Of a stretch of 64,000 bases of DNA, positions 1-64,000 are shown piece after piece. Position numbers and translations under genes: made by a program. The notes beneath the pieces were generated by a model. The model was given only the letters and a program-made list of their open reading frames with translations. It searched no databases and had not been told where the DNA came from. How positions within the stretch are numbered: the first letter of the stretch is position 1; every line of letters starts with the position of its first letter. The DNA lies in contig NZ_JAPFQO010000002.1 in the NCBI RefSeq assembly GCF_026241195.1, positions 372,001-436,000 of the forward strand. Reading direction: 5' to 3'. The DNA comes from Pontibacter anaerobius (lineage in GTDB: Bacteria; Bacteroidota; Bacteroidia; Cytophagales; Hymenobacteraceae).

Positions 1-1
1 T

Positions 2-571
2 GGTGTAAGCATCTGGGACGAGTGGGCGGATGAAAACGGCGACCTGGGGCCTGTATACGGCTCACAGTGGCGCAACTGGCCTACACCCGACGGCCGCCAC
101 ATCGATCAGATAACGCAGGTGGTGAACCAACTGAAAAACAACCCCGACTCGCGACGTATTATTGTGAGTGCCTGGAATGTGGCCGAGATCGAGCACATGA
201 AGCTGCCGCCCTGCCACGCTTTTTTCCAGTTTTATGTAGCCGAGGGCAAACTGAGTTGCCAACTATACCAGCGCTCTGCCGATGTTTTCCTGGGTGTACC
301 GTTCAACATAGCCTCCTACGCGCTGCTGGTGCTGATGATGGCCCAGGTAACGGGCCTGGAGCCTGGCGAGTTTATCTGGACCGGCGGCGATACGCATTTA
401 TACCTCAACCACCTGGAGCAGGCGCAACTACAGCTGACCCGCGAGCCGCGTGAGTTGCCGCAGATGAAGCTGAACCCGGATGTACAGGATATTTTCGGTT
501 TTAAATTTGAAGACTTCGAACTGGTAAACTATAACCCACACCCTGGCATTAAGGCACCTGTAGCTGTGTAA
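2..571 (+). CDS. thyA: Thymidylate synthase, C-terminal part (5' truncated by window edge)
   Basis: Thymidylate synthase methylates dUMP to dTMP with 5,10-methylene-tetrahydrofolate in the cytoplasm. The frame is open from base 2 and closely follows the E. coli enzyme: [17 protein letters not shown] near the start, then [10 protein letters not shown], the nucleophile motif PCHAFFQF (active-site Cys codon at 212-214), [25 protein letters not shown] and the C-terminal [11 protein letters not shown]. About the first 80 residues lie left of the window, so the true start is not visible. The ending with a single Val after APVA is normal for the family. A strong Shine-Dalgarno for the next gene begins 21 bases after the stop. 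Identification is essentially certain. Confidence 0.97.
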
Positions 572-591
572 GTATAAATCAGGATACTAAT

Positions 592-597
592 AGGAGG
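592..597 (+). promoter_or_regulatory. Strong Shine-Dalgarno AGGAGG
   Basis: A perfect AGGAGG six bases upstream of the ATG at 604. Most genes in this window lack a recognisable Shine-Dalgarno, as is usual in Bacteroidota, so this site stands out and supports the chosen start. Confidence 0.6.
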
Positions 598-603
598 TAA
601 AGT

Positions 604-1062
604 ATGCTAGACATTATTCAGGACAGAGATTATATCTTAAACCAGCTGCAACAGCTGAAGCCGGATGCCCAGCCTCAGTTTGGCCTTATGTCGCCGCAGC
701 ACATGGTGGAGCACCTGGCTTATGTAGTGCAGTTCTCTAACGGGAAACAGCCACAAAAGCTTTATTACCGGCAGGAGAAGGCCGAGAAGTTTAAGCAGTA
801 TACCATTTACAGCGAGCAGGAACTTGTACCAGGCTTCAGAGCCCCGATGTTAGGAGAAGAGCCAGCAGCTTTAGAGCATACTGATCTGGAAAATGCAATT
901 AAAAGCTTAGGGAACGAACTTCAGGCTTTTGATTCTTTTTTTCAGGACCGGCCGGCGGCAACGCCTGTTAGCCCCACTCTAGGCAAGTTGAACTACCAGG
1001 AGTGGGTGATATTCCACAGCAAGCATTTCAGGCACCACCTCCGGCAGTTTAACTTGCTTTAG
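604..1062 (+). CDS. DinB-superfamily protein, DUF1569-like
   Basis: 152-residue soluble protein with no signal peptide. Its His pattern, H33 and H37 in MSPQHMVEHL and H138, H141, H144 and H145 in the C-terminal HSKHFRHH, fits the four-helix DinB/DUF1569 fold, whose members bind a metal through three His. A close conserved ending EWVIFHSKHFRHHLRQF is typical of Bacteroidota members, some of which are fused or linked to PaaZ-like proteins. No substrate can be assigned. The start is fixed by AGGAGG at 592-597, six bases before the ATG, which is unusually strong for this phylum. It follows thyA by 32 bases and could be co-transcribed with it. Confidence 0.75.
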   Translation: MLDIIQDRDYILNQLQQLKPDAQPQFGLMSPQHMVEHLAYVVQFSNGKQPQKLYYRQEKAEKFKQYTIYSEQELVPGFRAPMLGEEPAALEHTDLENAIKSLGNELQAFDSFFQDRPAATPVSPTLGKLNYQEWVIFHSKHFRHHLRQFNLL

Positions 1063-1110
1063 CCAAAACATGCTTTTGTTTCGTATGTTAAGAGCTAAAA
1101 ACCTATAACT

Positions 1111-1875: not shown

Positions 1876-1898
1876 AAACACTGTAGTTTTAAAGTATA

Positions 1899-1929
1899 AG
1901 CACAGGCTCAGCGGCCTGTGCTTTTTTTG
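1899..1929 (+). terminator. Rho-independent terminator after the MBL gene
   Basis: Nine-base-pair perfect stem AGCACAGGC / GCCTGTGCT around a 6-base loop, followed by seven T residues. Confidence 0.9.
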
Positions 1930-1954
1930 TTTATAAGTGGGGTATTAACAATAG

Positions 1955-2167
1955 TATGGCAATTATTCCACCTACTTAACCGAAAACGGAAATCAAAAAT
2001 GTGGGGGAGTGCCTAATCCCCTCAGCCTAATAGAGCAAAAGCGCATTATTGATTCGGATAATTTTACATTAGGGCAGGTGCACCTGAGGTATAAGCTATA
2101 TTTTCCAGCCATCAGTTTGCATGTCCGTTATGCCATTTTTAACCAGGACAATGACTTAAGTTCTTAA
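1955..2167 (+). other. Open frame without ATG in the 1876-2268 intergenic gap
   Basis: The gap of about 390 bases holds two terminators and this 70-codon open frame, bounded by TAG at 1952 and TAA at 2165. It has no ATG; a GTG at 2009 would be the only conventional start. The translation contains TLGQVHLRYKLYFP and HVRYAIFN, which looks protein-like rather than random, but I do not recognise it. It may be a gene remnant or chance. Confidence 0.2.
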
Positions 2168-2215
2168 CAGAGCCAACCTCACTGCTAATCTAAGCATCTA
2201 ACATTCTAAATTACC

Positions 2216-2248
2216 AAAGCCCGAAGCAATCACTTCGGGCTTTGTTTT
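2216..2248. terminator. Bidirectional terminator
   Basis: Eleven-base-pair perfect stem AAAGCCCGAAG / CTTCGGGCTTT with a 6-base loop and a GTTTT tail on the plus strand. It lies 26 bases beyond the 3' end of the minus-strand SDR gene and is likely its terminator too. Confidence 0.8.
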
Positions 2249-2268
2249 ATACATATGCTTTAGAGCTG

Positions 2269-15326: not shown

Positions 15327-18236
15327 TTACCTCGCACAAATTCCCCTGTAAGCACACCACTTGCACACATCCAGATCCTTTGTTTTCTGAATCGGCTCGG
15401 ATGGGTCCAGCATCTTTCGCACAAACGCGCTGAGCAGCTCTTCCGATTTTTCTATAAATCCTTTTGGTAAATCATCCTCCTGTGCGAACGAGCTAAAGTC
15501 TGAGGAAAGCACCCCCGGCTCTAAATTACGGAAGGACAGGATGCCGGATTTCGGGTTTATACTTTGCGGCGTGATGTGGGCTGCGTTGCGCAGGATGGCT
15601 CCCGGCTGCTCGTCCAGCACCCGCTTCAATACGTACTCGTAGAGCCACAGCTGGCGGGCCTTGCCATACTTCTGGTCTGTGAGGAAGTGCAGGTCCACCT
15701 CCTCGGGCTTGATGCGCAGCTGGTTTTGCTCCACTTTGCCGGTCTTGTAGTCGATCACGCGCAGCTCGTGGCCGGTCAGGTCGATGCGGTCGGCCTTGCC
15801 GGCGATGCGCACGTGCACCATCTCGTCACCTACCTGCACCGGAAGCGTGGTGGCCAGCGTTTCCTCCAGGCGCAGCACGTAAAGCGGTAACTCGTCCGAC
15901 TCCTTCAGCTGCTGCAGGTATTTCTCCAACACCTCCACGGCCACCTTATAGAGCAGGTAGTTCATGCCGCGCTCCGGTTTGGCGCCCAGCGTCACTTTGC
16001 TGAACTCAGCCTTTACCTTATCCGGCAGCGCCTGCAGCATCTGCTCTACATGGCCGGCAAGTATAGGCTTACCGCTCTGCTCGTGCGGACGGAAGAAATC
16101 TTCCAGCACCTGGTGCACGATGGTACCGAACTGATCGGCCCCCAGCTGTTCCTCCACCTCATCCATCTCCTGCATTTTGGCGATGCGGGTAAAGTAGTAC
16201 TGCAGCGAGCAGTTGATGTACATGTTCAGGTGCGAAGGGTAGAGGCCGCGCTCCAGCTCCTGCCGCAGCTGGGCAATGGTTTCCGGCGATTTTGGCACCA
16301 CGATGTCCTCCTCATACTTGCGCGTCTCCTGCTGCTCTACCGCCGCTATCATGTCCCGGAATTTGATCTTCGGGTTGCGCAGGGCCAGGTCGTTCTGCAA
16401 CTGAAGTATAAAACGGCTCTTCTCGCCCGAGCCATAGGTATCTGAAGGGAGTACATACAGCAGGTTGATTTTCTTGGCGCGCTGCAGCAGGCGGTAGAAG
16501 TTATAGGCCATGGCGCCTTCCGTCTCGGCATAGGTCGGCAGGCCAAACTCCCGCAGCACATCATACGGCATCAGGCTCTCTTGCCGCTTGGGTGCGGGCA
16601 GCACGTTCTCGTTCACCGACAGGATGATCAGGTTCTCAAAATCAAGTGCGCGCGTCTCCAGCATACCCATGATCTGCACCTCCGAGATTGGCTCTCCGCT
16701 GAATGGCAGTCTTGTTTGCCCGATCAGCTCATACAGGAACTTGCGGAAGCTGCGCACCGAAATCTTGTGCTCGCGGCAATCAAAAATGGTATCCAGGCGC
16801 TTCACCAAAGTATAAAATATGTACAGGTACTCCGTCTCGATGCTGTTGTGGCCATGCGTGTATACTTCACGCAAGAGTTCGATGAGTTCATACATGGCCA
16901 CAATGATGTCGTCGCAGTCGCGCCAGGTGCGGAAGAGCACCTCGAACAAGGGGTGGTGCTGGCTAAGCTCGATCAGTTCCTGGGCCGTGATGAGCACCTT
17001 GTTCTCCTGCACCATTTTATCGAGCACCTGCCGGATCATGCCATGGAATCTGGCTTGCTCGGGATCATCATTTAAGTATAATTCATACCGGCGGATGAAG
17101 GGGTGGGTGAGCAGTTTGGTAACGCTCAGGTGATGGTACTGGTATACTTTGTAGCCGGAACTTTGCAGCTGCGTTACGCCTGTCAGGTGCACCTCAAAGA
17201 GCAGGTCGATGAGGTTGAAAAGCGGCGTGCCCCGGAAACTGAGACCCATGGTCACGTTATAAGTCGGTACATCCGCCGGAATGGAGTGCAGCACCGGCAG
17301 CAGCAGGGTTTCGTCGGGCAAAACGATGGCAGTTTGCGCGTGCGGGTTCTGTTCCCGTATCTCCTGCAGCAACTGCCCGGCCAGTTTGCCCTGCATACTG
17401 GCATTGGCCACGCCTATCACGTTGATCTCTTTGTCATCGGTGAGCAGCAGGTTTTGCTGCCAGCGCCACTCCGGCAGGTTCCAGGTGCTTTTATACTTGC
17501 TCAGGAAGCTCCCGGCCCGGTTGCTAAGACCCAGTTCGTCCATGTAAAAATCATCCGAATCAAAAAGCACCTCGGCTTTGTCATGCTTCAGCAGCGTCCG
17601 GATGATTTTTTCCTCGGAGCGGGTAAGGCTGTTAAGTCCGATGAAGATGAACTGGTGGCACTCGGTTTCTTTGGCGATGCGCTCTATGTTCTGGGCAACC
17701 TTGCGGAACGCCATACCTGTGTAGGCCTGCTTGTTCTCCAGCAAACGCTTTTGCAGGCTGTGGTAGGTTTTCTCGATATTATCCCAGAGGCTGAAGTACT
17801 TTTTAAGGGTAGGAGACAGCTCTTTGCCCAAGAATTTGGGGTCCCAGCGCTCCAGGGCCTTTGCCTCGCCCAGGTATTCAAACAGTTTGCCCGTGTCTAC
17901 CAGGTTCTGATCTATCCGGCTGAAATCCTCCAGAAGGGTGCCGGCCCAGGTTACGAAGTTGTCGAAGTCAAGCTTCGGGTCTTGCTCCCGCATCTGGTCG
18001 AAAAGCTCCAGCTGCAGGTTTATCGGCTCCAGCACATCGGTTTTGGAGAGGCTGCGGATAAAGTCCTCCATGGCATACACCTCCGGCGACCAGATCGGCT
18101 CGTCAGACGCCTGCGCCAGCGCGGTCTTAAAGAAGAAGCTGGCACGCCTGGACGGCAGCACTACACACAGTTCGCTGATGTTCTCTTTATACTTTTCGTA
18201 AACGTACTTAGCCGTTAGCTCCAGAAAGGTTTGCAC
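15327..18236 (-). CDS. addB: AddB-like subunit with PD-(D/E)XK nuclease and Fe-S cluster
   Basis: Double-strand break repair helicase-nuclease subunit, 969 residues. The N-terminal two thirds are a helicase-like region beginning VVLPSRRASFFFK, without a canonical Walker A, so likely an inactivated motor used for Chi recognition as in known AddB. The C-terminal nuclease has NCSLQYYF (Cys near 674), FGTIVHQVLEDFF, the catalytic IDYKTGK, and CKWCAYRGIC (Cys958, 961 and 967). Together the four Cys match the AddB 4Fe-4S cluster that clamps the nuclease. Its partner addA-like gene lies 750 bases upstream on the same strand, separated by a VOC gene. No gene follows for 0 bases: the next frame starts immediately after its TAA. 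Confidence 0.85.
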   Translation of the reverse strand: MQTFLELTAKYVYEKYKENISELCVVLPSRRASFFFKTALAQASDEPIWSPEVYAMEDFIRSLSKTDVLEPINLQLELFDQMREQDPKLDFDNFVTWAGTLLEDFSRIDQNLVDTGKLFEYLGEAKALERWDPKFLGKELSPTLKKYFSLWDNIEKTYHSLQKRLLENKQAYTGMAFRKVAQNIERIAKETECHQFIFIGLNSLTRSEEKIIRTLLKHDKAEVLFDSDDFYMDELGLSNRAGSFLSKYKSTWNLPEWRWQQNLLLTDDKEINVIGVANASMQGKLAGQLLQEIREQNPHAQTAIVLPDETLLLPVLHSIPADVPTYNVTMGLSFRGTPLFNLIDLLFEVHLTGVTQLQSSGYKVYQYHHLSVTKLLTHPFIRRYELYLNDDPEQARFHGMIRQVLDKMVQENKVLITAQELIELSQHHPLFEVLFRTWRDCDDIIVAMYELIELLREVYTHGHNSIETEYLYIFYTLVKRLDTIFDCREHKISVRSFRKFLYELIGQTRLPFSGEPISEVQIMGMLETRALDFENLIILSVNENVLPAPKRQESLMPYDVLREFGLPTYAETEGAMAYNFYRLLQRAKKINLLYVLPSDTYGSGEKSRFILQLQNDLALRNPKIKFRDMIAAVEQQETRKYEEDIVVPKSPETIAQLRQELERGLYPSHLNMYINCSLQYYFTRIAKMQEMDEVEEQLGADQFGTIVHQVLEDFFRPHEQSGKPILAGHVEQMLQALPDKVKAEFSKVTLGAKPERGMNYLLYKVAVEVLEKYLQQLKESDELPLYVLRLEETLATTLPVQVGDEMVHVRIAGKADRIDLTGHELRVIDYKTGKVEQNQLRIKPEEVDLHFLTDQKYGKARQLWLYEYVLKRVLDEQPGAILRNAAHITPQSINPKSGILSFRNLEPGVLSSDFSSFAQEDDLPKGFIEKSEELLSAFVRKMLDPSEPIQKTKDLDVCKWCAYRGICAR

Positions 18237-18292
18237 GTGGGAGTAGTTTTGAATGGGTGAATTTTGAACTAGTGATTGAGAATACCTCTTTT

Positions 18293-18367
18293 TGTCATTC
18301 TGGAAGAATCTTGGTTGCTTGAGCTGAGGCTTTTGAAACTCTCTAACAAGATCCTTTCAGGATGACA
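18293..18367. repeat. Imperfect inverted repeat, possible dispersed intergenic element
   Basis: Left arm at 18293-18315 (TGTCATTCTGGAAGAATCTT...) and right arm at 18345-18367 (AACAAGATCCTTTCAGGATG...) pair over about 22 bases with a few mismatches around a 29-base spacer. Words such as CAAGATCCTTTCAGGATGAC are familiar as dispersed intergenic repeats in Bacteroidota. No second copy is seen in this window. It lies between the VOC and addB-like genes. Confidence 0.55.
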
Positions 18368-18458
18368 GCTTAAGTTATGGCTTTTATAGTATAACGCCGG
18401 CTTCGTCTGTCAAAACTGATGATCGTGTCATATTAGGAAATCCCAAAATTCCTGATTT

Positions 18459-18893
18459 TTAATGGATGGAAGTATGCCGATGGCCCTTCGGTTCCTCCGG
18501 AAGTATGAAGGGATTATAAGCGATTTCCCACAGGTTATCGTCCGGGTCGGCGACATAGCCGCTGTAGCCGCCCCAGAACACTTTCTCAGGATGTTTCACA
18601 ACGATGGCGCCCTTTTGCTCCAGTTCAGCCACCAGCTCATCCACCTCTTTTTCGGAACGCACGTTGTGCGCCAAGGAAAACTTCTTGAATCCGCTGCCTT
18701 CTGCGGACACTCCGGCATCATCGGCCAGCGACTCCTGCGGGAAAAGCGACAGTAAAATCCCGTTCAACTGAAAGAATACGATGCTTTCAGAGTCTGTCTC
18801 AACAGGCTGCCAGCCAAACACCTGCTGGTAAAAATCCTTGGATCGCTGCAGGTTTCTAACCCCAAGCGTGATCAATGTGATGCGTTGTTCCAT
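18459..18893 (-). CDS. VOC-superfamily (glyoxalase/bleomycin resistance-like) protein
   Basis: 144 residues with the paired beta-alpha-beta-beta-beta modules of the vicinal oxygen chelate fold: ITLITLGVRNLQRSKDFYQQVFGW at the front and GGYSGYVADPDDNLWEIAYNP at the back, the latter being the usual module ending with the metal-ligand Glu. No specific substrate is indicated. It sits between the two Add subunit genes on the same strand. Whether this is a functional link or chance insertion is unclear. Confidence 0.88.
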   Translation of the reverse strand: MEQRITLITLGVRNLQRSKDFYQQVFGWQPVETDSESIVFFQLNGILLSLFPQESLADDAGVSAEGSGFKKFSLAHNVRSEKEVDELVAELEQKGAIVVKHPEKVFWGGYSGYVADPDDNLWEIAYNPFILPEEPKGHRHTSIH

Positions 18894-18988
18894 GGTTGTC
18901 TATTGTTAAAATCTTAAATGCCTGTAGTCGGGTTGATGTGTATGTTTATACTTTACTGTATCTGATGAACTGTTCTGGCAGGTTAAAA

Positions 18989-21900
18989 TTAAAGCCCTAA
19001 GCCCAGCTGCTCCGTCTTTTTTCCGCCGTACTGCCACTCCTTCACCGCTTCTGTCTCGAAATAGTAGAGGATGCATTTAACTTTCTCGTAGCCCAGCTGC
19101 CTAAAGCGCACCGCGTAATGGTCCAGTTTATACTTGTGCTCCGGCTCGGGCGGCGGTGTTTTAAACTCTATCAATACCACTGTGTCACCGTCAAACACGA
19201 TGCGGTCGGGTTTGTAGAGGTAGGCGCGGGCATCCAGCACTTCCTTCTCGTGCTCCACCACCACCTGGTTTGTAAAGTAGCGGTTTAGATCGGGGTGCTT
19301 GAGCACGGAGGCCAGTTTTTGCTTTAGCTCCGGCTTTTCCCGCTCGCTGATAATCCCCTCGTACACCATTTGCCGCAGCACTTTATCCAGCTCCGGGGTA
19401 AAGGCGATGCGGGCCAGGGCGTAGTGCAGCTTGCGGTTTTGCTGGCGTTGCGCAGTCTGCGTCTCAAAGTCGAACACGTTGTTGGCGTGTTGCTTAATCT
19501 TCAGGCGCTGCTCCCAGTCGGCGGAGGCCAGGTGCTCCAGCAAGTATGAATTCTCGTCTGTCGGGCGGTGATGTATACTTTGCGGCTTGCCCTGCGCCAG
19601 CTGGTAGCAATGTTTCCCGAATTCCCATAGCTCCTTGTGCACCAGGTAACGGTAAAGCAGGTGGCTCACGTTCTTCGCCTGACCGTCCAGCTTCGGCGCT
19701 TTGCGCTCCTCCTGCAGGTCTTTGGCGTTGCCGATCAAATACAGCCTGTCGATGGGGCGGGTGAGGGCCACGTAGAGCATGTTCAGGTTCTCTATAAAGG
19801 TTTTCTCTATCTCGGTGCTGTATTGTTTGGCAAGAATGGTGTTCTCCAACTTAGAGCTTATGTTAACTGCCACGCTGCGCAGCTTGCCAGTCACGCTCAC
19901 CTCATCCGGCAGCGGGCTCCACATTAGCGAGCCGCGCTTGGGTTCAGTGCCCCAGTCTGCAAACGGGATGATCACGATGGGGTAGGCCAGTCCCTTTGAT
20001 TTGTGGATACTGGTGATGGTGATGGCGTTTCGGTCTTTGGGCGTGTTGATGCTCAGCTTGTCTTTCTGCACATCCCAGTATGCCAGGAAATTGTTCAGGT
20101 TATTGCTGTGCTTCAGGCTGTACTCCAGCACCAGGTCCAGGAAGCGGAACAGGTACTCGCTCTCGTTGTTCTTGCCCAGCAGGTCAAAAATGCGGATTAG
20201 CTTCTCCGTCAGCTCATAAATGGAGAGGTTTCCGGTTTCGCGCTCCTGCACATCAAAATCAAACAGCCGCAACTGATCAAAGAAAGACTGGTTCTCCTTG
20301 TCGTTGGCGATATCAGCGATGGTCTTGGTCATCTCCACATCCGGAATCACGCCCAGCGACACCTTGCACACCAGGTATAGCGCCTCAGATTTGGCCAGGG
20401 AATCATTAGGCCGGTTAAAGACCCGGAACATGGCGATGATCAGGTTAATGACCTCGGCAAACTGCAGCGAGAGCGAGTCTTGTGAGATGATGTCAAACTT
20501 GCGCTCCTTCAGGAAATTGGCGATCAGCTTGCTCTTTATATTGGTGCGGCAAAGTATAGCCATGTCTTTCAAGGTGTAGCCTTCGGCCATAGCCTGCTGC
20601 ACCAGGTGCAGCACCATATTCAGCGTGCTCTCGTCGTAAGTAAGCGCCTTTTCAGAAGTATAGCCGTCGTACAGTTGCTCGGTGCGTTCGCAGCTGTTCA
20701 GGTCATACTTCAGGTTCAGGTCATCATCATGCGTAAACATGATCTGGATATGGCCGCCGCTTTTGTCGCTGCCCGGGGGCACTTGCTGCGCAAAGTCCTT
20801 GTCGTAAATGGAGGTGAACATGCCGAACTCCTGGTGCTCCTGGCTGATGAACGTGAAGAGCTCGTTGTTAAAGTCGATGATCTCGGAGCGGCTGCGGTAG
20901 TTCACGCTCAGGTTCTGCGGCTGCAGCGCCTGGTCCACCGACTCATACCGTTCCCGGATCAGCGGCCCGTGGCGGCGGTTCTCGTACAGTTGGCGTGTGT
21001 TGTTTTTATAGAGATGCAGAATCTGCTCCATCTCGCCGCCGCGCCAACGGTAAATGGCCTGCTTGGCGTCACCAACCACCATGCTGAAGTGCCCGGAAGC
21101 CAGGGCATTATCCACCAACGGCAGCAGGTTGTTCCATTGCAGCACCGAGGTGTCCTGAAACTCGTCGATCAGGATGTGCCTGTACTTCTCGCCCAGCCTT
21201 TCATAGATAAACGGCACCGGCTCTTTCAGCACAATATCAATGATGCGCTTGTTGAACTCGGAGATATGCACTGTGTTCTTGTCCAGCTTGATCTCCTGCA
21301 GGCATTTTTCCAGCTCGTTCAGCAAGGATACTTTATAGAGGTGCGGCACCACCTGCTGCACTAGCGTAAAAGTGGCGGCGTACTGCTCTTTTATACTTTC
21401 GATGTGATAGTACAGGTCCGTGAGCGGCTGTTTTATACTTTCTATTTGCGCTTTGGCATAGGCAGAGGCTTTGCCGCCGAACCACTTATCATCCTCAATC
21501 GTTTTCTGCGCGTTGCTGTTGCTGTAGTTCAGGTCTACCTCTTTCAGCCACTTGTTAAAGTATGACCATATGCCGCGGTTGCCCTGGTACAGGTCGGCAG
21601 GGGAGACGTCGGCTTTCTCGAACAGCTGCATGGCCTGCTGCGCCGCTTCTTCCACCGTTTCAGCTACCTGCTGCTGTACAAGGAAGAGCTGCTCCCGCAC
21701 CTCCCGAAAACTCTCCAGGCTCAGTTGCTGCAGGTCGGTGATGGCTTCGTATACCTGCTCGTTCAGGAGGTTCTTGGCAAAGTCCCTCAGGTCGTCGGGC
21801 AGCATAGTCCAGCTTTTCCCTTCGCGGGCTTTCTCCAGCGCATACTGCTCCAGGGTTTGTGAGAGCAGGTCGTCTTTCGAGTCGGTTACTTTATCGAGCA

Positions 21901-22387
21901 GTAGCGACACGGCAGTGCTGACCAGCGTATTGGAGTCCAGGTCCACCTCAAAGTTTTGAGGGATGTTGAGCTCTCTGGTAAAAGCCTGCACGATCTTGTT
22001 CACGAAACTATCGATGGTGCTCACGCTAAAGTCGGAGTAGTTATAGAGTATCTGCCGGAAAAGCACGGCTGCCCTTTTCCGAACCTCCTCCACATCGAAC
22101 TGCTCCTCCGGGTACTCATTCTGTAACTCTTCCGTTATCTGGCGCAACAGGTTTTCGCTTTTCTGCTTGTCTTTTTCCGGCAGGCTGGTGTCGTTGAACT
22201 GGCGAAGCGCGGCCATGATGCGCTCCTTCATTTCGGCAGCGGCATCGTTGGTGAAGGTGATAGCCAGTATGCCGCGGTAGTAGTCCGGGTCGGAGGTGTG
22301 CAGGGCCAGCTTCAGGTATTCCTTGGTCAGGTTATAGGTTTTGCCGGAGCCGGCAGAGGAGGAGTATATCTTAAAGACAGATGGCAT
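18989..22387 (-). CDS. addA: AddA-like UvrD/RecB helicase-nuclease
   Basis: 1132-residue superfamily 1A helicase fused to a RecB-type nuclease, for DNA double-strand break repair and recombination. Motifs: Walker A SSAGSGKT (10-17), AITFTNDAAAEMKERI, Walker B LIDEFQDTS (about 406-414), AIYRWRGGE, VNYRSRSEIIDFN, TIHKSKGLAYP and MLYVALTRPIDRLYL. The C-terminal nuclease carries YKPDRIVFDGDTVVLIEFKT around 1055-1075, with the Asp and the ExK needed for PD-(D/E)XK catalysis, so it should be active. Pairs with the AddB-like gene about 750 bases downstream on the same strand. Confidence 0.88.
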   Translation of the reverse strand: MPSVFKIYSSSAGSGKTYNLTKEYLKLALHTSDPDYYRGILAITFTNDAAAEMKERIMAALRQFNDTSLPEKDKQKSENLLRQITEELQNEYPEEQFDVEEVRKRAAVLFRQILYNYSDFSVSTIDSFVNKIVQAFTRELNIPQNFEVDLDSNTLVSTAVSLLLDKVTDSKDDLLSQTLEQYALEKAREGKSWTMLPDDLRDFAKNLLNEQVYEAITDLQQLSLESFREVREQLFLVQQQVAETVEEAAQQAMQLFEKADVSPADLYQGNRGIWSYFNKWLKEVDLNYSNSNAQKTIEDDKWFGGKASAYAKAQIESIKQPLTDLYYHIESIKEQYAATFTLVQQVVPHLYKVSLLNELEKCLQEIKLDKNTVHISEFNKRIIDIVLKEPVPFIYERLGEKYRHILIDEFQDTSVLQWNNLLPLVDNALASGHFSMVVGDAKQAIYRWRGGEMEQILHLYKNNTRQLYENRRHGPLIRERYESVDQALQPQNLSVNYRSRSEIIDFNNELFTFISQEHQEFGMFTSIYDKDFAQQVPPGSDKSGGHIQIMFTHDDDLNLKYDLNSCERTEQLYDGYTSEKALTYDESTLNMVLHLVQQAMAEGYTLKDMAILCRTNIKSKLIANFLKERKFDIISQDSLSLQFAEVINLIIAMFRVFNRPNDSLAKSEALYLVCKVSLGVIPDVEMTKTIADIANDKENQSFFDQLRLFDFDVQERETGNLSIYELTEKLIRIFDLLGKNNESEYLFRFLDLVLEYSLKHSNNLNNFLAYWDVQKDKLSINTPKDRNAITITSIHKSKGLAYPIVIIPFADWGTEPKRGSLMWSPLPDEVSVTGKLRSVAVNISSKLENTILAKQYSTEIEKTFIENLNMLYVALTRPIDRLYLIGNAKDLQEERKAPKLDGQAKNVSHLLYRYLVHKELWEFGKHCYQLAQGKPQSIHHRPTDENSYLLEHLASADWEQRLKIKQHANNVFDFETQTAQRQQNRKLHYALARIAFTPELDKVLRQMVYEGIISEREKPELKQKLASVLKHPDLNRYFTNQVVVEHEKEVLDARAYLYKPDRIVFDGDTVVLIEFKTPPPEPEHKYKLDHYAVRFRQLGYEKVKCILYYFETEAVKEWQYGGKKTEQLGLGL

Positions 22388-29548: not shown

Positions 29549-31006
29549 ATGAAATATGATGTGGCGATAATTGGCTCCGGCTTCGGTTCTCTGACGGCGG
29601 CGGCCCTGCTTTCGAAGCGTGGGCTGAAGGTGTGCGTGCTGGAACAGGCCAAGTACCCAGGCGGCTGCGCCACTTCCTATAAACGAAAAGGCTACTGGTT
29701 CGAAACAGGCGCCACCACATTGGTTGGCCTGGACAAGCACATGCCGCTGCGCCATTTTCTGGATGAAACCGGTATTCAGGTGCCGCTTCAGCAACTACAG
29801 ATACCGATGCAGGTACACCTGCCGGATGGGCAAACCCTAACCAGGCATGCCCACCTGCACGATTGGATTGCTGAAGCGGAAAGAGTGTTCGGTAAGTATA
29901 ACCAGCGCCCGTTCTGGGAGCATTGCTTCAGCATGAGCCAGCAAGTATGGCGCTCCTCGCTGCAGCAGCAGAGTTTTCCTTTCTCCAATTTTAAAGATCT
30001 GCTGCTTTCGGGGCTACGTGCCAGACCCGGTCAGGTGAAGCTTTTGCCCGGGGCATTTCTGACGATGGAAGACGTGCTGCGCAAGTATGATCTGCTGCAA
30101 AACCAGTTGTTTGTCGATTTTGTGAACGAGCAGCTGCTGATAACGGCGCAGAGCTACCTGCCAGAGGTTAATGAGCTGTTCGGAGCAACAGCACTTTGCT
30201 ACACCCTCTATAGCAATTACTATGTACCCGGTGGGCTGATCAACCTGGTTAAACCTGTGGAGCAATATATTCTTGCTAATGGATCAAGTATAAAATATGG
30301 CCAAGAAGTACAGGCGGTGGCAACTCTAGCTGATGGATACAGATTGGACACAAATAAAGAAAGCTTCGAAAGCAGGTTTGTGATCTCCGGGATTCCGTTG
30401 AACAATACGCTGCTGCTCTTTCAGGATCAAAAAACTAAGCAACGCCTAAAGCCATACTTGCTTGAGAGCGAACAATTGAACGGAGCGTTTACCATGTCGC
30501 TGGTACTGCGCGCTGAGGAGAAGCGGCAGGAGGTGCTGCACCACCAGGTACATGTGCCGCAGGGGGTCCCCGGAATAGGCGGCAAGAGTATCTTTATCAG
30601 CTTCAGCCATCCGCAGGATACCGCAAGAGCACCGGCAGGGGAGATGGTGGCCAGCATTAGCACCCATGTGCATGATCCGCAGCTGCACGTGGTCAAGGAT
30701 AAACAAAGTATAGAAATGGCCATACTTGACGTGCTGGTTGAGCGCGGCCTAATCCGCAGGGAAAGTATACTTTCTGTACAGGCTGCGACTCCCGGTGCCT
30801 GGATCTTCTGGACCAAACGGGCTTACGGTGCAGTGGGCGGCTACCCCCAGTACCGCCGCATAAAGCCCTGGCAGATGAAAGATGCCCGTTTAGACCACCG
30901 CGGTGCCTACCTCTGCGGCGATACCGTGTACCCCGGCCAGGGAATTCCTGGTGTTTGCCTGAGCGGTATCATAGCTGTAAACAAGCTGCTGCAGGATCAT
31001 TTTTAG
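29549..31006 (+). CDS. CrtI/CRTISO-like FAD-dependent oxidoreductase
   Basis: 485 residues, phytoene-desaturase superfamily. N-terminal AIIGSGFGSLTAAALLSKRG with KVCVLEQAKYPGGCATSY, and the C-terminal signature GAYLCGDTVYPGQGIPGVCLSG. Members desaturate or isomerise carotenoids or retinols; the lone position, away from crt genes, leaves the substrate open. This gene has nine copies of the AAGTATR word described below (about six per kilobase), more than most. It is divergent from the YeeZ-like gene and converges on the NuiA-like gene with a 7-base gap. Confidence 0.85.
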   Translation: MKYDVAIIGSGFGSLTAAALLSKRGLKVCVLEQAKYPGGCATSYKRKGYWFETGATTLVGLDKHMPLRHFLDETGIQVPLQQLQIPMQVHLPDGQTLTRHAHLHDWIAEAERVFGKYNQRPFWEHCFSMSQQVWRSSLQQQSFPFSNFKDLLLSGLRARPGQVKLLPGAFLTMEDVLRKYDLLQNQLFVDFVNEQLLITAQSYLPEVNELFGATALCYTLYSNYYVPGGLINLVKPVEQYILANGSSIKYGQEVQAVATLADGYRLDTNKESFESRFVISGIPLNNTLLLFQDQKTKQRLKPYLLESEQLNGAFTMSLVLRAEEKRQEVLHHQVHVPQGVPGIGGKSIFISFSHPQDTARAPAGEMVASISTHVHDPQLHVVKDKQSIEMAILDVLVERGLIRRESILSVQAATPGAWIFWTKRAYGAVGGYPQYRRIKPWQMKDARLDHRGAYLCGDTVYPGQGIPGVCLSGIIAVNKLLQDHF

Positions 31007-43835: not shown

Positions 43836-44642
43836 TTATAGAAGTATGGCCTTGATGAAAGCGGCGGACTGACTTAATACTACATACTTGGCTTCGCGGT
43901 GAGGAGAATGGCCGATTTCCGGAATAAGGAGCTGCTGCGCCGGCCCCTGCACTTGCGTCTCAATTGCTTCAACCTGGGCTTGGGTCCCATACTCATCAGC
44001 CTCTCCCTGGATCACCAGCACCGGGCAACGTATGGATGGCAGGTAATGCTCGATGTTCCAGTTCCTGAAATTTTCTGAAAGCCACGTATCGGCCCAGGCG
44101 TGGAATACGTCATCCGTTTTGTCGCCATGGTATTTCTGCAGCTTCTCCGGCAGGTTGGTGGTTTGGTAAGCAGTAACGGCTGCCCGAATCCCTGCTAAGG
44201 TCACTTCCTCCACAAATACATGCGCCCCTTCGGTGATGATGCCTGCAATACGGGATTTATATTTTGCCGCCGCTATCAGGGCTATACTTCCGCCATCGGA
44301 GTGGCCGAAAAGTATGGCTTTGGTTACCTGAAGCTGCTCCAGTAATTGCTCCAGCACATCCGCCTCTCGCTCAAGGTAATCCTGCCCACGTTTTATACTT
44401 TGGAAAGGGGACGATTCACCATAACCCTGCCTGTCGTACACAAGTGCGGAACAGCCTGTTGCCTTCGCCAATTGCTCCGGGAAATCGCGCCATAGTTTGA
44501 TGCAGCCCAGCGAGTCGTGCAGGAATACCAGTACAGGCTTATCTGCCACTGCCTTAGCACCCGGGTAAAGCCACTTCAGATGCAGGGTGGCCTTTTCTAT
44601 AAGTATACTTTCTTCTTTGGTTGAGAGGGATTTTTGCGGCAT
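43836..44642 (-). CDS. Alpha/beta-hydrolase
   Basis: 268 residues from the ATG at 44642 (MPQKSLSTKEE). A longer start at 44708 would run through the terminator of the next gene, so it is rejected. Fold motifs: LVFLHDSLGCIKLWRDFPEQLA oxyanion region, LVYDRQGYGESS, nucleophile elbow GHSDGGS, VIQGEADEYG with the acid, and EIGHSPHRE with the catalytic His. No signal peptide. Substrate unknown; resembles proline iminopeptidase/lipase-like hydrolases. Confidence 0.88.
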   Translation of the reverse strand: MPQKSLSTKEESILIEKATLHLKWLYPGAKAVADKPVLVFLHDSLGCIKLWRDFPEQLAKATGCSALVYDRQGYGESSPFQSIKRGQDYLEREADVLEQLLEQLQVTKAILFGHSDGGSIALIAAAKYKSRIAGIITEGAHVFVEEVTLAGIRAAVTAYQTTNLPEKLQKYHGDKTDDVFHAWADTWLSENFRNWNIEHYLPSIRCPVLVIQGEADEYGTQAQVEAIETQVQGPAQQLLIPEIGHSPHREAKYVVLSQSAAFIKAILL

Positions 44643-44697
44643 AAAAGTATAAGTATGGTAATAGAACCTGAAATTAGCACCTGGATGTGCTAAAACA

Positions 44698-44731
44698 AAA
44701 ATCCCCACCCGGAAAACCGAATGGGGATTTT
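44698..44731 (-). terminator. Terminator of the S46 peptidase gene
   Basis: Ten-base-pair stem AAAATCCCCA / TGGGGATTTT around a GC-rich 14-base loop, just past the stop codon. Confidence 0.8.
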
Positions 44732-48573: not shown

Positions 48574-50016
48574 TTATAACAGTTCATTGGCAAGATTTGC
48601 CAGCTCCGAGCGTTCGCCTTTTTGCAGGGTAATATGCGCATAGAGTGGGTGGTTGCGAGCGCGGTCTATCAGGTAGGAAAGGCCGTTACTCTGCGAATCG
48701 AGGTAGGGTGTGTCTATCTGGTAAATATCGCCTGTAAAAATGATCTTGGTGTTCTCTCCGGCCCTGGAAATAATTGTTTTTACCTCATGCGGCGTCAGGT
48801 TCTGCGCCTCATCCACTATAAAGAAAATGTTGGACAGGCTACGCCCGCGAATATAAGCCAGCGGTGTGATCATCAGTTTCTCCAACTCTACCATCTCACG
48901 CAGCCGCTGGTATTCCTTGCTCGTTTCCGGGTACTGGTTCTGTATGTACTTCAGGTTATCCCAAAGCGGCTCCATGTAGGGGTTCAGCTTCGATTTGATA
49001 TCGCCAGGCAAGTAACCAATGTCCTTGTTGCTGAGGGGCACGACGGGTCGCGCCAGGTAAATCTGCTTGTACTCACGGCGTTGCTCGAGGGCGCTGGCCA
49101 GGGCCAGCAGCGTTTTGCCTGTACCGGCTACTCCCTGCACACTGATTAGCTTTATGTGCGGGTTGGTGAGCGCATGCAGGGCAAAGGCCTGCTCCGCGTT
49201 ACGGGGCTTTATACCATAGGCCGTTTGTTTGTCCACCCGCTCCAGCCGCTTCTCTGCAATGTTGTAAAAGGCAAGTACAGAATTTTTAAAGCTCTTCAAC
49301 ACAAAGAAGTGATTGTCAGTAGGTGGTGCAGGCAGCACTTTCTCCGCATCGCAGAAGCCATGCTCATAGAGTTCGTTCACCGCTCCGGCAGCCACGTCTT
49401 CCAGGGTGTCGCAGCCGGTATACAGGTCAGCCACATCCTGTATCTTGCCGGTCTCATAATCTTCGGAAATTATGTTCAGGGAACGGGCCTTAAGACGCAG
49501 GTTAATGTCTTTCGTGACCAGCACGACTTTATTGCCGGGCTTGTCCTGCTGTAGTTTTAGAGCTGAGTTGAGGATGTGGTGGTCGTTCTTATCTCCAAAG
49601 ATATTGATAGCATCGACCCCGGAGATAGTGTTGTTCATCAGTACTTTAAAACTGCCTTTGTTCCTCCCGTTCAAAGGGATCCAATCCTGCAACTTATGCT
49701 CTGAGGATAGTTTGTCGATGAAGCGGATAAACTCACGCGCCTCGAAGTTCTTGATGTCGTTGCCTTTCTTAAAGTTATCCAGCTCCTCTAAAACCGTAAT
49801 GGGTATGGCCACGTCATGCTCCTGAAAGTTCTTCACGGCGCTGTGGTCGTAGAGAATGACGGAGGTGTCCAACACAAAAATTTTCTTGCTGTGATTGTCT
49901 AGCGGTGGTAGTTTAGCAGCAGAGACTTTTGCGGGTTTATTGTTACTGCCGGCTGCTTTACGGGTAGTTTTGCTGGTGGTGCCAGCTATACTGGTTTCGG
50001 GCGATGCTTTAGGCAT
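48574..50016 (-). CDS. PhoH-family ATPase with N-terminal PIN domain (PhoH2-like)
   Basis: 480 residues. A low-complexity N-terminus (1-40), then a PIN nuclease domain (about 45-190; acidic residues in VLDTSVILYD, LEELDNFKKGN, NDHHIL and VTKDINLRLKA), then a PhoH ATPase with Walker A VQGVAGTGKT (about 291-300) and Walker B FIVDEAQN. This fusion, PhoH2, is thought to be an RNA helicase-ribonuclease. Own transcription unit, preceded by a 270-base gap. Confidence 0.92.
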   Translation of the reverse strand: MPKASPETSIAGTTSKTTRKAAGSNNKPAKVSAAKLPPLDNHSKKIFVLDTSVILYDHSAVKNFQEHDVAIPITVLEELDNFKKGNDIKNFEAREFIRFIDKLSSEHKLQDWIPLNGRNKGSFKVLMNNTISGVDAINIFGDKNDHHILNSALKLQQDKPGNKVVLVTKDINLRLKARSLNIISEDYETGKIQDVADLYTGCDTLEDVAAGAVNELYEHGFCDAEKVLPAPPTDNHFFVLKSFKNSVLAFYNIAEKRLERVDKQTAYGIKPRNAEQAFALHALTNPHIKLISVQGVAGTGKTLLALASALEQRREYKQIYLARPVVPLSNKDIGYLPGDIKSKLNPYMEPLWDNLKYIQNQYPETSKEYQRLREMVELEKLMITPLAYIRGRSLSNIFFIVDEAQNLTPHEVKTIISRAGENTKIIFTGDIYQIDTPYLDSQSNGLSYLIDRARNHPLYAHITLQKGERSELANLANELL

Positions 50017-59659: not shown

Positions 59660-59663
59660 CATA

Positions 59664-61466: not shown

Positions 61467-61474
61467 CTTCTAAA

Positions 61475-61488: not shown

Positions 61489-61510
61489 CTTTTAGGGCAA
61501 CCGCCAAAAC

Positions 61511-61518
61511 TACCTTTG
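61511..61518 (+). promoter_or_regulatory. -7 element TACCTTTG of the CcoI-type gene
   Basis: Exact TAnnTTTG match placing transcription start near 61523 and a short leader of under 20 bases to the start codon. Confidence 0.6.
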
Positions 61519-61530
61519 TATTAGTTAGAT

Positions 61531-61536
61531 AGGAGG
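61531..61536 (+). promoter_or_regulatory. Shine-Dalgarno AGGAGG
   Basis: Perfect AGGAGG four bases before the ATG at 61541; unusual for this phylum and decisive for the start. Confidence 0.6.
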
Positions 61537-61540
61537 AATT

Positions 61541-63952
61541 ATGGCGACTAAAGCTGCTTTAAGCACTGAAATACAAACCTGCTACCACTGTGGAGATAAG
61601 TGTGTGGATGAGTTGATTGTGGCGAATGACAAAACCTTTTGCTGCACCGGCTGCAAGAATGTTTACGAGCTGCTGGAGGAGAATAACCTGTGCACCTATT
61701 ACTCGCTGGACAGCACCCCAGGTATAACCGGTAATCAACCAGCCAACGAGGCTCGTTTTGCCTACCTGGACGATGAAGGCGTGGAGGCACAGCTGCTCAA
61801 CTTTAAAAACGACAGCATCGCAAAAGTAACGTTTTATGCGCCCCAGATGCACTGCAGTTCGTGTATCTGGCTGCTGGAAAACCTGTTCAAGCTTAACCCC
61901 GGCATCTCGGAGTCTACCGTTAACTTCCTGCGGAAGGAAATCTCCGTTACCTTTTTTCATCAGAAAACAACCTTGCGAGAGGTCGTAACCCTGCTTGCCC
62001 GCATCGGGTATGAGCCGTCTATTACGTTGGCTGATACGGATGGCAAGAAGGAGACGAAGAAAAACTACTCCCTCATCTATAAATTAGGAATAGCAGGTTT
62101 CAGCTTCGGCAATGTCATGTTGCTGGCCTTTCCGGACTACCTTTCGCTGGGAGAAGAAGTGCAGCGTGACTTCGGGAAGTTTTTTGGCTACCTGAGTATA
62201 CTGCTCTCGCTGCCCGTGCTGTTTTACAGTGCCCGTGGCTTTTTCGAATCAGCCTGGGCTGGTATACAGCAGCGCATGGTCAACATTGACCTTCCGATTG
62301 CAACCGGTTTGCTGGCGCTTTTCATTACCAGTACCTACCAGATCATCTCTGCCACAGGCCCCGGCTACTTGGATTCCTTTACGGGTCTGGTCTTCTTTAT
62401 GCTGATCGGGAAGTATTTCCAGCAGAAAACATACGATACGCTCTCATTCGACAGAGACTATACTTCCTACTTCCCGGTATCAGTTACGGTGCTGAAAGAG
62501 AACGGTGAGGAAGAGTCGGTGGCAGTTCGGAACCTGAAAGTAGGCGACCGAATCCGTATCCGAAACCAGGAGCTTATACCGGCTGATGCCATGCTGCTGC
62601 GCGGCACTGCCATGGTAGACTACAGCTTTGTGAGCGGAGAATCTGAGCTGGTTGAGAAAGTGGTGGGCGAGGTAATATACGCCGGTGGCCGCCAGGCTGG
62701 TGAAAGTATAGAGCTGGAGGTTGTGAAAGAGGTATCGCAAGGGTATTTGACACAGCTTTGGAACAACAGTGTTTTCTCTAAGAATGAGGAGCAAAGTATG
62801 GAAACCTATGCCAACGTAGCCGGCAAGTGGTTTATCATCGTTACGCTTCTTGTTGCTGCCGGTGCCCTTATTTACTGGGTACCGCGTGACACAAGTATGG
62901 CCATGCGTGCCTTTACTTCTGTCTTGATTATAGCGTGCCCGTGTGCGCTGTCGCTCTCTACACCTTTTGTACACGGCAACACACTCCGCATTTTCGGTAA
63001 GCACAAGTTTTTCTTAAAGAATACAGGCGTAGTGGAAACATTAGCCAAAATAGACACCGTTGTTTTTGACAAGACAGGCACTTTAACCGAGCCTAGCGCG
63101 GCAGAACTAAGCTATTCAGGAAAGATACTTACACCGGAGCAGGAGCAGAGTTTGAAATCTGTACTCCGCCACTCCACACACCCGCTCAGCCAGCGTATTT
63201 TCCAGGCTATTGCAGGCGAAGCGCAGGAGGTGCATGGCTTTGAGGAGTTTGCAGGAAAAGGACTTGTTGGGGAAGTAAATGGCCACTTCATAAGATTAGG
63301 ATCGGCCTCATACTTAGGCGTTAAGGCAGACACATCTCAAGATACACTTAAAACGCGCGTATATGTATCTATAGACGGTGTAGTGTACGGTTACTATACT
63401 TTCCAGAACGTTTACCGGTCCGGATTACAAGATGTACTTCAGGGGCTGGAGGTCGGCCGAGTTGCAGTCTTGTCAGGTGACAATAACCACGAAGAGGCGC
63501 GCCTACGGGAGTTGCTGGGGCAGGAGGCAGAGCTAAACTTTAACCAGAGCCCGGTTCAGAAGCTGGAGTACATTAAAGAGCTTAAAAACCAGAACCGTCA
63601 TGTGCTGATGGTAGGAGATGGTTTGAACGATGCCGGTGCACTGAAGCAAAGCGACGCAGGTATAGCGCTGACAAATAGTGTTACTAACTTCTCACCATCC
63701 TGCGACGCCATACTGGACGCCACCGCTTTTAACAAGCTGAGTAAGTTCATCGGCTTCTCTAAAAAGAGCATGAACATTATCCTGGCGAGCTTTGCAGTTT
63801 CATTGGTGTATAACGTGGTGGGCCTGACAATGGCGGTACAGGGAATTTTCACGCCCATCGTTTCTGCCATACTTATGCCTATCAGTTCCGTCAGCGTAAT
63901 TGTTTTCGCGACACTCTCCGTGAGGTATGCTGCTAAAAAAGCAGGGCTTTAA
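61541..63952 (+). CDS. ccoI: CcoI/FixI-type copper-translocating P-type ATPase
   Basis: 803 residues. Supplies copper to cytochrome cbb3 oxidase assembly. N-terminal CYHCGDKC and CCTGC (residues 14-40) followed by an HMA domain with MHCSSC (Cys105 and Cys108), transmembrane helices from about 180, CPC at 466-468 (IACPCALSLSTP), phosphorylation Asp510 in DKTGTLTEP, GDGLNDAGAL and two final helices. The N-terminal Cys cluster is typical of the CcoI branch. The gene opens towards the window edge; ccoS/ccoN-type genes would be expected next but lie outside. Preceded by FNR-like boxes. Confidence 0.9.
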   Translation: MATKAALSTEIQTCYHCGDKCVDELIVANDKTFCCTGCKNVYELLEENNLCTYYSLDSTPGITGNQPANEARFAYLDDEGVEAQLLNFKNDSIAKVTFYAPQMHCSSCIWLLENLFKLNPGISESTVNFLRKEISVTFFHQKTTLREVVTLLARIGYEPSITLADTDGKKETKKNYSLIYKLGIAGFSFGNVMLLAFPDYLSLGEEVQRDFGKFFGYLSILLSLPVLFYSARGFFESAWAGIQQRMVNIDLPIATGLLALFITSTYQIISATGPGYLDSFTGLVFFMLIGKYFQQKTYDTLSFDRDYTSYFPVSVTVLKENGEEESVAVRNLKVGDRIRIRNQELIPADAMLLRGTAMVDYSFVSGESELVEKVVGEVIYAGGRQAGESIELEVVKEVSQGYLTQLWNNSVFSKNEEQSMETYANVAGKWFIIVTLLVAAGALIYWVPRDTSMAMRAFTSVLIIACPCALSLSTPFVHGNTLRIFGKHKFFLKNTGVVETLAKIDTVVFDKTGTLTEPSAAELSYSGKILTPEQEQSLKSVLRHSTHPLSQRIFQAIAGEAQEVHGFEEFAGKGLVGEVNGHFIRLGSASYLGVKADTSQDTLKTRVYVSIDGVVYGYYTFQNVYRSGLQDVLQGLEVGRVAVLSGDNNHEEARLRELLGQEAELNFNQSPVQKLEYIKELKNQNRHVLMVGDGLNDAGALKQSDAGIALTNSVTNFSPSCDAILDATAFNKLSKFIGFSKKSMNIILASFAVSLVYNVVGLTMAVQGIFTPIVSAILMPISSVSVIVFATLSVRYAAKKAGL

Positions 63953-64000
63953 CAAGCGCCACTGGTAAGCTGAATTCATAATCCGAACCTTTAAATCATA

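What the first reader, a model, noticed from the sequence alone, without database searches (positions are those of the whole stretch)
1..64000. Extreme over-representation of the word AAGTATR (both strands) across the whole window
By manual count, AAGTAT or its complement ATACTT occurs about 204 times; equal-base expectation for a hexamer on both strands of 64 kb is about 31. About 95% of copies are followed by A or G (AAGTATA, AAGTATG). Copies lie between genes and inside genes, where they appear as Lys-Tyr (AAG TAT), Ser-Ile (AGT ATA), Ser-Met (AGT ATG) or Ile-Leu (ATA CTT). They are sparse in thyA, aldehyde dehydrogenase, deaD and the RND permease (about 1 per kb or less) and dense in less conserved genes (9 in the 1.46 kb CrtI-like gene) and in gaps. 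This recalls HIP1 in cyanobacteria or uptake sequences, but the word fits neither. Candidates are a site for a nucleoid or repair protein, an uptake or methylation signal, or a mutation bias. I know of no description.
Basis: partly seen in the sequence, partly recalled or inferred. Interest (0 to 1): 0.8.

Follow-up and report, generated by a model that had tools for sequence, protein, structure and literature searches.

The report
Genome-wide DNA word with species dialects
A seven-letter DNA word is scattered thousands of times through this Pontibacter genome, and related species use altered spellings of it or seem to have lost it, much like the self-recognition words of bacteria that take up DNA, although these bacteria appear to lack the pili that read such words elsewhere.

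Summary
AAGTAT occurs 205 times in the window; AAGTATR occurs 12,788 times in the 4.65 Mb genome against 1,176 for the reversed word. Resampling synonymous codons predicts 130 copies in ORFs of a 456 kb stretch; 938 are there. The genome is a Pontibacter. Of 50 genomes of the genus, 20 carry this word (D1), 12 AGGTATA (D2), 4 AACTATA (D3), 3 both D1 and D3, 11 none of the three; of these, G115 resembles a GGGTATR species (D4) and G002 uses TATATAR (D5) in samples. D1 looks ancestral, with switches and losses. Places are often kept while the spelling changes. Strand bias is absent or slight; no single-mismatch neighbour of AAGTATA is drained. This is how Neisseriaceae DNA uptake sequence dialects behave, but the pilus platform protein PF00482 is absent (0 of 50) and no methyltransferase of three families is shared. 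ComEC and a ComEA-like gene are in all 50, as in pilus-less transformation of Riemerella. Best reading: the uptake word of a pilus-independent competence system; the receptor was not found. Another Bacteroidota genome has AGGCRAG, 17,449 copies.

The parts
1..64000 (.). 205 dispersed copies of AAGTAT (102 on +, 103 on -), 194 of them AAGTATR
29549..31006 (+). CrtI-like FAD-dependent amine oxidoreductase gene with 9 copies (6.2/kb); used to fetch 73 named loci
43836..44708 (-). alpha/beta hydrolase gene, densest of the ORFs counted: 9 copies (10.3/kb)
48574..50016 (-). PIN/PhoH gene, 1.44 kb without a copy
18989..22387 (-). AddA-like UvrD/RecB-family helicase (relevant to the Chi rival)
   Evidence: Pfam PF00580 and PF13361; NCBIfam addA/recB models match but below their cut-offs
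15327..18236 (-). AddB-like PD-(D/E)XK nuclease (relevant to the Chi rival)
   Evidence: Pfam PF12705; NCBIfam TIGR02786 addB_alphas matches but below its cut-off

Best explanation
AAGTATR is a genome-wide recognition word of a sequence-specific DNA-handling process, most likely a DNA uptake word: a surface or periplasmic receptor of a pilus-independent natural transformation system binds DNA that carries the word, so alleles with the word are taken up and recombined more often and the word accumulates by drive wherever proteins tolerate it. When the receptor's specificity shifts by a base or two, old copies are re-spelled or decay while new ones rise (AAGTATR, AGGTATA(G), AACTATAG, GGGTATR, TATATAR: three variable bases before a TAT-purine core); when the process is lost, the word decays. 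Shown here: word, dialects, two-dialect genomes, species without a strong word, conservation above background, near-absence of strand bias, absence of PF00482, presence of ComEC and a ComEA-like gene. Inferred: that the process is uptake, and that a receptor sets the dialect.
For: Dialects: 39 of 50 genomes carry D1, D2, D3 or D1+D3 above 1.1 per kb; 31 of 38 named Pontibacter loci show a word, incl. D4 in L039; G002 has TATATAR at 2.24/kb in 40 kb of 54.6% G+C DNA, against 0-0.61 in the other Pontibacter stretches. Three genomes carry two dialects (G018, G033, G058), as Simonsiella muelleri does for DUS (PMC3630211, abstract and one results section read); 2.75/kb is like kingDUS there (5918 in 2.4 Mb). 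D2 and D3 are clades. At the homologous place of a D1 site, D2 species have AGGTATA in 10.3% of cells, D3 species AACTATA 10.7%, the D4 species GGGTATA 9.4%; species without a strong word have AGGTATA 1.6%. Sites are kept in 59-87% of comparisons in ten word-bearing pairs against 22-60% for other 7-mers; for D1 an A/G change at the last base counts as kept. Asymmetric word, strand-balanced. Four of 20 sampled 20 kb stretches of the D3 genome G083 hold 5-19 copies, the other sixteen 35-82; a sample of the 74 kb second contig of G129 is also poor, as expected for recent arrivals. ComEC 50 of 50; ComEA-like gene in all 50, open in 49. Riemerella, also Bacteroidota, transforms without pili using ComEC, an HhH protein and outer-membrane proteins (PMC8459023; abstract, passages and one section read).
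Against: No receptor found. ComEC and the HhH gene have open frames in all 11 genomes without D1-D3, so loss of the word is not loss of these genes. G087 has both genes broken yet has 7,936 copies, and a comparison with G000 and G071 showed no special decay there (losses 15 in G087, 25 in G071, 5 in G000); G046, with a stop in comEC, has 9,303 D2 copies (100 contigs, so possibly a sequence error). The DUF5689 family of the Riemerella surface protein is found in only 22 of 50 genomes, in two unlike forms, and not in G000. Whether any Pontibacter transforms is unknown to me (one search listed ten of 1,577 partial matches; the one paper with all terms was not read). Cells are not independent: by distinct places 22 of 51 D2 sites lie on D1 places, but so do 11 of the 15 AGGTATR sites of species without a strong word. 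L016 (D3 only) branches before the mixed species L018 and L022, so mixed genomes are not plainly one-way intermediates.
Confidence: 0.45

Rival explanations
1. The word is read inside the cell by a chromosome-acting protein unrelated to uptake (nucleoid, repair or segregation factor), and selection keeps many sites.
For: Sites are conserved above background, denser in gaps than in genes and densest in convergent gaps; no receptor was found; com genes are kept in genomes without the word. A 20 kb stretch of the 204 kb second contig of G071 carries it at chromosomal density.
Against: Missing from at least four places on the tree, so not essential; thousands of copies inside genes with no fixed spacing; two spellings at once in three genomes.
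Confidence: 0.22
2. The word is the Chi site of the AddAB-like recombinase whose genes lie in the window itself (15327-22387).
For: Chi words are asymmetric, 5-8 bases long and differ between species (recalled, not from a call); an AddAB-like pair is present; the D1 genome G071 has a slight leading-strand excess (295 against 232, nominal p 0.007).
Against: Chi words are usually strongly leading-strand biased (recalled); the D3 genome G083 has 515 leading against 508 lagging. AddA is present in seven of seven named species without a strong word and AddB is whole in L009 (for L020 only its first 323 residues were fetched). AddA was not in the fetched stretch of L006, a D1 species.
Confidence: 0.14
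3. A HIP-like word made or kept by an orphan DNA methyltransferase and methyl-directed mismatch repair, as proposed for cyanobacterial HIP1 (PMC4390886).
For: Similar abundance, and spelling shifts between related genomes (PMC4390886: abstract, section 3.5 and the first of three parts of the Discussion read).
Against: The word is asymmetric and AT-rich, not a GC-rich palindrome. PF02086 and PF07669 were not searched.
Confidence: 0.08
4. A pure mutation or repair bias favours the word in its sequence context.
For: Spread over genes and gaps, both strands.
Against: Neighbours one base away from AAGTATA stand at 0.53-2.3 of expectation (leaving out AAGTATG), none drained (for the D2 and D3 8-mers the expectations are too small to judge). 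A 7-8 base context, spelling switches and losses within one genus would need several changes of bias.
Confidence: 0.08

Closest known systems
DNA uptake sequence (DUS) dialects of Neisseriaceae (Frye et al. 2013, PMC3630211)
   Same: Thousands of copies, short word, one- or two-base dialects that follow phylogeny, a genome with two dialects, relatives without any, similar top density (kingDUS 5918 in 2.4 Mb).
   Different: Different word; phylum Bacteroidota; no PF00482 (pilus/T2SS platform) hit in 50 genomes, so a type IV minor pilin such as ComP is an unlikely reader; uptake not shown.
Uptake signal sequences (USS) of Pasteurellaceae (PMC12616744, passages read)
   Same: Two dialects in one family; abundant short word.
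   Different: Receptor there predicted to be a type IV minor pilin; different word.
HIP1 and alternate HIPs of cyanobacteria (Elhai 2015, PMC4390886)
   Same: Highly iterated word of unknown function, replaced by other words in some genomes, low or absent in others.
   Different: HIPs are GC-rich palindromes with matching methyltransferases; here asymmetric, AT-rich, and no shared methyltransferase of three families.
Pilus-less natural transformation of Riemerella anatipestifer (Huang et al. 2021, PMC8459023)
   Same: Bacteroidota without pili; ComEC and an HhH ComEA-like gene are also in all 50 Pontibacter genomes.
   Different: The term 'uptake sequence' does not occur in that paper's main text; its DUF5689 family is not general in Pontibacter.
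Chi sites of RecBCD/AddAB (recalled)
   Same: Short, asymmetric, abundant, species-specific.
   Different: Strand bias absent (G083) or slight (G071) here; AddA also kept in species without a strong word.

Membership tests
DNA uptake sequence (DUS/USS) | Short word present in thousands of copies, far above chance | tested here: met
   12,788 AAGTATR against 1,176 reversed
DNA uptake sequence (DUS/USS) | Dialects consistent with phylogeny, some genomes with two dialects | tested here: met
DNA uptake sequence (DUS/USS) | Type IV pilus machinery with minor-pilin receptor | tested here: not met
   PF00482 in 0 of 50 genomes, 13 of 14 control genomes ring; other pilus families not searched
DNA uptake sequence (DUS/USS) | Inner-membrane channel ComEC and periplasmic ComEA | tested here: met
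   ComEC 50 of 50, stop inside in G046 and G087; HhH gene in all 50, broken in G087; TIGR00426 ComEA HhH over its cut-off for the G000 protein
DNA uptake sequence (DUS/USS) | Word raises DNA uptake or transformation | not testable with these tools
   needs an assay
HIP1-like words | GC-rich palindrome | tested here: not met
   AAGTATRR, AGGTATAG, AACTATAG, GGGTATR, TATATAR
HIP1-like words | Matching DNA methyltransferase in every word-bearing genome | tested here: not met
   PF01555 31 of 50, PF00145 23 of 50, G077 and G000 without either; PF02384 patchy; PF02086 and PF07669 not searched
Chi site | Strong leading-strand bias | tested here: not met
   G083 515 against 508; G071 295 against 232 (400 kb sampled of each)
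Chi site | Recognised by AddAB/RecBCD | not testable with these tools
   AddA found in species with and without a strong word

The most novel reading that the evidence does not exclude
Bacteroidota have their own class of DNA uptake words, read by an unknown receptor of a pilus-independent transformation machine. The words form at least four, perhaps five, dialects within Pontibacter, and other words of the same class exist elsewhere in Bacteroidota (AGGCRAG, 17,449 copies in one genome).
Probability: 0.4. Interest if true: 0.92.

Novelty: new variant of a known kind. Interest (0 to 1): 0.8.

Why it matters
Self-recognising uptake words are known from Neisseriaceae and Pasteurellaceae, both pilus users. 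A dialect-forming word in a genus without the pilus platform would show that such drive arose independently with another receptor, would give a sequence handle to find how Bacteroidota take up DNA, and would offer about 50 sequenced species with switches, mixtures and losses in which to watch a reader and its word co-evolve.

Tried and rejected
Type IV pilus reader: disfavoured, PF00482 absent in 50 of 50. Loss of ComEC or of the HhH protein as cause of word loss: not supported, open frames in all 11 genomes without D1-D3, read in full for ComEC in G002, G028, G095, G109, G125, G127 and for the HhH gene in G028 and G125 (in G002 my ORF caller picked an overlapping frame instead). DUF5689 surface protein as receptor: hits of about 413-450 aa occur in 12 genomes, all with a D1-D3 word, but most D1 genomes incl. 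G000 have none, and several of these genes follow a SusD-like gene by my reading of the translations, so not a general receptor. Neighbours of comEC and of the HhH gene: one lipoprotein family was near the HhH gene in 5 of 5 genomes with a D1-D3 word and in none of G002, G028 and G125, but by my reading of its sequence it is an alpha/beta hydrolase, so dropped. G087 as a natural competence knock-out: inconclusive; G071 with intact genes has no higher density. Methyltransferases: rejected for three families. Strongly strand-biased recombination or segregation word: rejected. Literature: ten searches showed no report of this word or of an uptake word in Bacteroidota among the listed titles; for AAGTATA 15 of 82 papers were listed and none was opened, for ten of 1,577. 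The library holds open-licence papers only. So absence from print is not shown. PMC1939737 was seen as abstract only.

Dropped rows and limits: loci shorter than 10 kb were left out of the word table; D4 and D5 were not counted genome-wide; of the 11 genomes without D1-D3 I looked for other words in samples of 20-40 kb of G002, G028, G095, G109, G115, G125 and G127 only, so G013, G073, G113 and G131 could hold another spelling. G002 counted as word-less in my first tables and was found to use TATATAR on re-check. The tree uses 8 genes and its support values were not printed; D1 as ancestral and the number of losses are read from it by eye. ORFs were called mechanically.
Full report
Observation. 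The count is right. AAGTAT occurs 205 times in 64 kb, evenly on both strands, and 194 copies go on with A or G. In the whole genome (4,648,497 bases, 29 contigs) AAGTATR occurs 12,788 times, the reversed word 1,176 times. A high-order Markov model reduces the excess but does not remove it (AAGTAT 205 against 153), and such a model is partly circular because the word inflates its own sub-words. A test free of that, resampling synonymous codons in 456 kb of the same genome, predicts 130 +/- 11 copies inside mechanically called ORFs; 938 are there. The reversed word as control gave 87 seen and 91.5 predicted. Density is 2.35 per kb in ORFs, 5.83 in gaps and 8.74 in gaps between convergent genes.

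The site. In G000 the six bases AAGTAT are followed by R (A 62%, G 30%) and then a preference for A or G; the flanking positions beyond carry about 0.1 bit or less. Words one base away from AAGTATA stand at 0.53 to 2.3 times their second-order expectation, leaving out the R alternative AAGTATG. A bias that converts one neighbour into the word should leave that neighbour depleted; none is. For the D2 and D3 8-mers the expectations are too small for this test.

Who has it. The CrtI-like gene brought 73 named loci, 38 of them Pontibacter, so the window is from Pontibacter (Hymenobacteraceae). In a family search of 150 genomes, only the window's own genus shows strong enrichment, and there only in part of the genomes; genera g2, g4, g5 and g6 sit at roughly 0.75 to 1.5 times the control, and g3 at 1.3 to 2 times. 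The orthologous stretches of named sister species show other words: AGGTATAG(C) (D2), AACTATAG (D3), GGGTATR (D4, one species). Of the 38 named Pontibacter, I read 13 as D1, 12 as D2, 3 as D3, 2 as D1 plus D3, 1 as D4 and 7 as without a strong word. Genome-wide counts for D1, D2 and D3 in all 50 genomes of the genus give 20 D1, 12 D2, 4 D3, 3 D1 plus D3 and 11 below 1.1 per kb for all three. Of these 11, G115 looks like D4 in a 20 kb sample (GGGTATR 1.17/kb). G002 carries TATATAR, dispersed on both strands, at 2.24 per kb in 40 kb of 54.6% G+C DNA, where the other Pontibacter stretches have 0 to 0.61; I take it as a fifth spelling (D5), not yet counted genome-wide. G131 (0.83 per kb, 87% complete) has a weak D1. 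In the 20-40 kb samples of G028, G095, G109, G125 and G127 I saw no comparable dispersed word; local repeats explain the top words of G125. In 400 kb of the D3 genome G083, AACTATA is 1,023 against 74 expected. Written over one another, the spellings are AAG, AGG, AAC, GGG or ATA followed by TAT and mostly a purine.

History. On a tree of eight concatenated proteins, D1 is spread over the early branches, D2 and D3 are each one clade, and species without a strong word fall in at least four places. The two named mixed species lie inside the D3 clade, after L016, which is D3 only, so they need not be simple intermediates. I take D1 as ancestral; this is a reading of the tree, not a formal reconstruction. 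At places where a D1 species has AAGTATA, D2 species most often have AGGTATA (303 of 2,952 cells), D3 species AAGTATA (71) or AACTATA (69 of 647), the D4 species GGGTATA (23 of 245), and species without a strong word AGGTATA in only 28 of 1,735. Cells share ancestry. By distinct places, 22 of 51 D2 places, 12 of 49 D3 places and 5 of 16 D4 places coincide with a D1 place, where frame-preserving shifts give about 0.1 to 0.5; but 11 of the 15 AGGTATR places of species without a strong word coincide as well, so the number of independent re-spellings is modest. Sites are kept better than other 7-mers in all ten word-bearing pairs compared (59-87% against 22-60%; for D1 an A/G change at the last base counts as kept), and only a little better in the one pair without a strong word (59% against 47%, 28 sites).

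Placement. Taking the sign of GC skew as guide, the word is 515 leading against 508 lagging in 400 kb sampled along the D3 genome G083, and 295 against 232 (nominal p 0.007) along the D1 genome G071. Four of the 20 stretches of G083 hold only 5 to 19 copies, the other sixteen 35 to 82; the four have 40-43% G+C, but so low a G+C also occurs in two stretches with 49 and 60 copies. A 20 kb sample of the 74 kb second contig of G129 has 0.5 per kb where the genome has 2.4; a sample of the 204 kb second contig of G071 has the chromosomal density. This fits DNA that gains the word with residence time.

Machinery. PF00482, the platform protein of type IV pili and type II secretion, is absent from all 50 genomes while 13 of 14 control genomes ring. 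ComEC is in 50 of 50, with a stop inside in G046 and G087. A gene of about 304-346 codons with ComEA-type helix-hairpin-helix repeats is in all 50 and broken in G087; the G000 copy passes the cut-off of TIGR00426. Huang et al. 2021 (PMC8459023; abstract, passages and the protein section read) found that Riemerella anatipestifer, a pilus-less Bacteroidota, needs ComEC, DprA, ComF, RecA, an HhH protein, a DUF1343 protein and an operon of a DUF5689 protein and a predicted outer-membrane protein for transformation. So a pilus-less route exists in the phylum, and two of its parts are general in Pontibacter; the others were not searched, except DUF5689, which is not general (22 of 50, in two unlike forms).

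Mechanism. A dialect-forming, asymmetric, strand-balanced word that spreads into genes, shifts by one or two bases, can coexist with another spelling and is missing in some lineages is what Frye et al. 2013 (PMC3630211; abstract and one results section read) describe for DUS dialects, including one genome with two dialects in near-equal number and relatives without any. I therefore put a word-specific uptake step, read by an unknown receptor, first (0.45). Against it stand the missing receptor, the open comEC and HhH frames in genomes without D1-D3, G046, and G087, where both genes are broken while the word is still abundant; a three-way comparison gave no sign of special decay there. An intracellular reader (0.22) and Chi for the AddAB-like pair in the window (0.14) remain. 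The Chi reading lacks the strong strand bias, and AddA, and AddB where read, are kept in species without a strong word. The HIP/methyltransferase reading (0.08) lacks a shared methyltransferase: G077, with 12,353 copies, has no PF01555 or PF00145 hit and only two PF02384 hits just above the cut-off. A pure mutation bias has 0.08. The re-check changed facts (G002, G046, strand sums) but in both directions, so I left the odds as they were.

Generality. One fetched locus from another Bacteroidota MAG (L050) carried its own dispersed word; its genome holds 17,449 copies of AGGCRAG in 4.6 Mb against 361 reversed, and in the 14 kb locus the word extends to G-Y-AGGCRAG. The other eleven genomes in that search were not strongly enriched (at most about 2.2 times the control). 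The phenomenon is thus not confined to Pontibacter, and this word shares no spelling with the first.

Size. Genomes without D1-D3 are larger (median 5.8 Mb, 11 genomes, against 4.6 Mb, 39 genomes; Mann-Whitney p = 3.6e-6). With G002 and G115 moved to the word-bearing side it is 9 against 41 genomes, p = 1.9e-5. Neither is corrected for relatedness. This would fit loss of a recombination route that limits foreign DNA, but is only a correlation.

Noticed in passing
L050 (whole genome G150): A Bacteroidota MAG with its own genome-wide asymmetric word, (G-Y-)AGGCRAG: 17,449 copies against 361 reversed, in a 4.6 Mb genome.
   Followed up: partly
L241 and L253 (G002): TATATAR is dispersed at 2.24 per kb in 40 kb of a 54.6% G+C Pontibacter genome: a likely fifth spelling. 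CCGTAGC in the same sample is a local repeat.
   Followed up: partly
L097-L106 (G119): In this D3 genome the word often forms the palindrome AACTATAGTT or close pairs 8 or 12 bp apart; gaps between convergent genes hold 16.6 copies per kb amid mosaics of short hairpin-like repeats.
   Followed up: partly
L097-L106 (G119 C1:1-200000): The D3 word is 247 on + against 420 on - over 200 kb, where called genes are 51 on + and 107 on -; no such bias in samples along G083.
   Followed up: partly
L247 and L256 (G087): Single-contig Pontibacter genome with both comEC and the ComEA-like HhH gene broken; it may be a natural competence-loss lineage.
   Followed up: partly
window 15327-22387: AddAB-like helicase and nuclease pair lies in the window; AddA is present in the seven named species without a strong word.
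   Followed up: yes
genus-wide table: Pontibacter genomes without a D1-D3 word are larger (median 5.8 against 4.6 Mb).
   Followed up: partly
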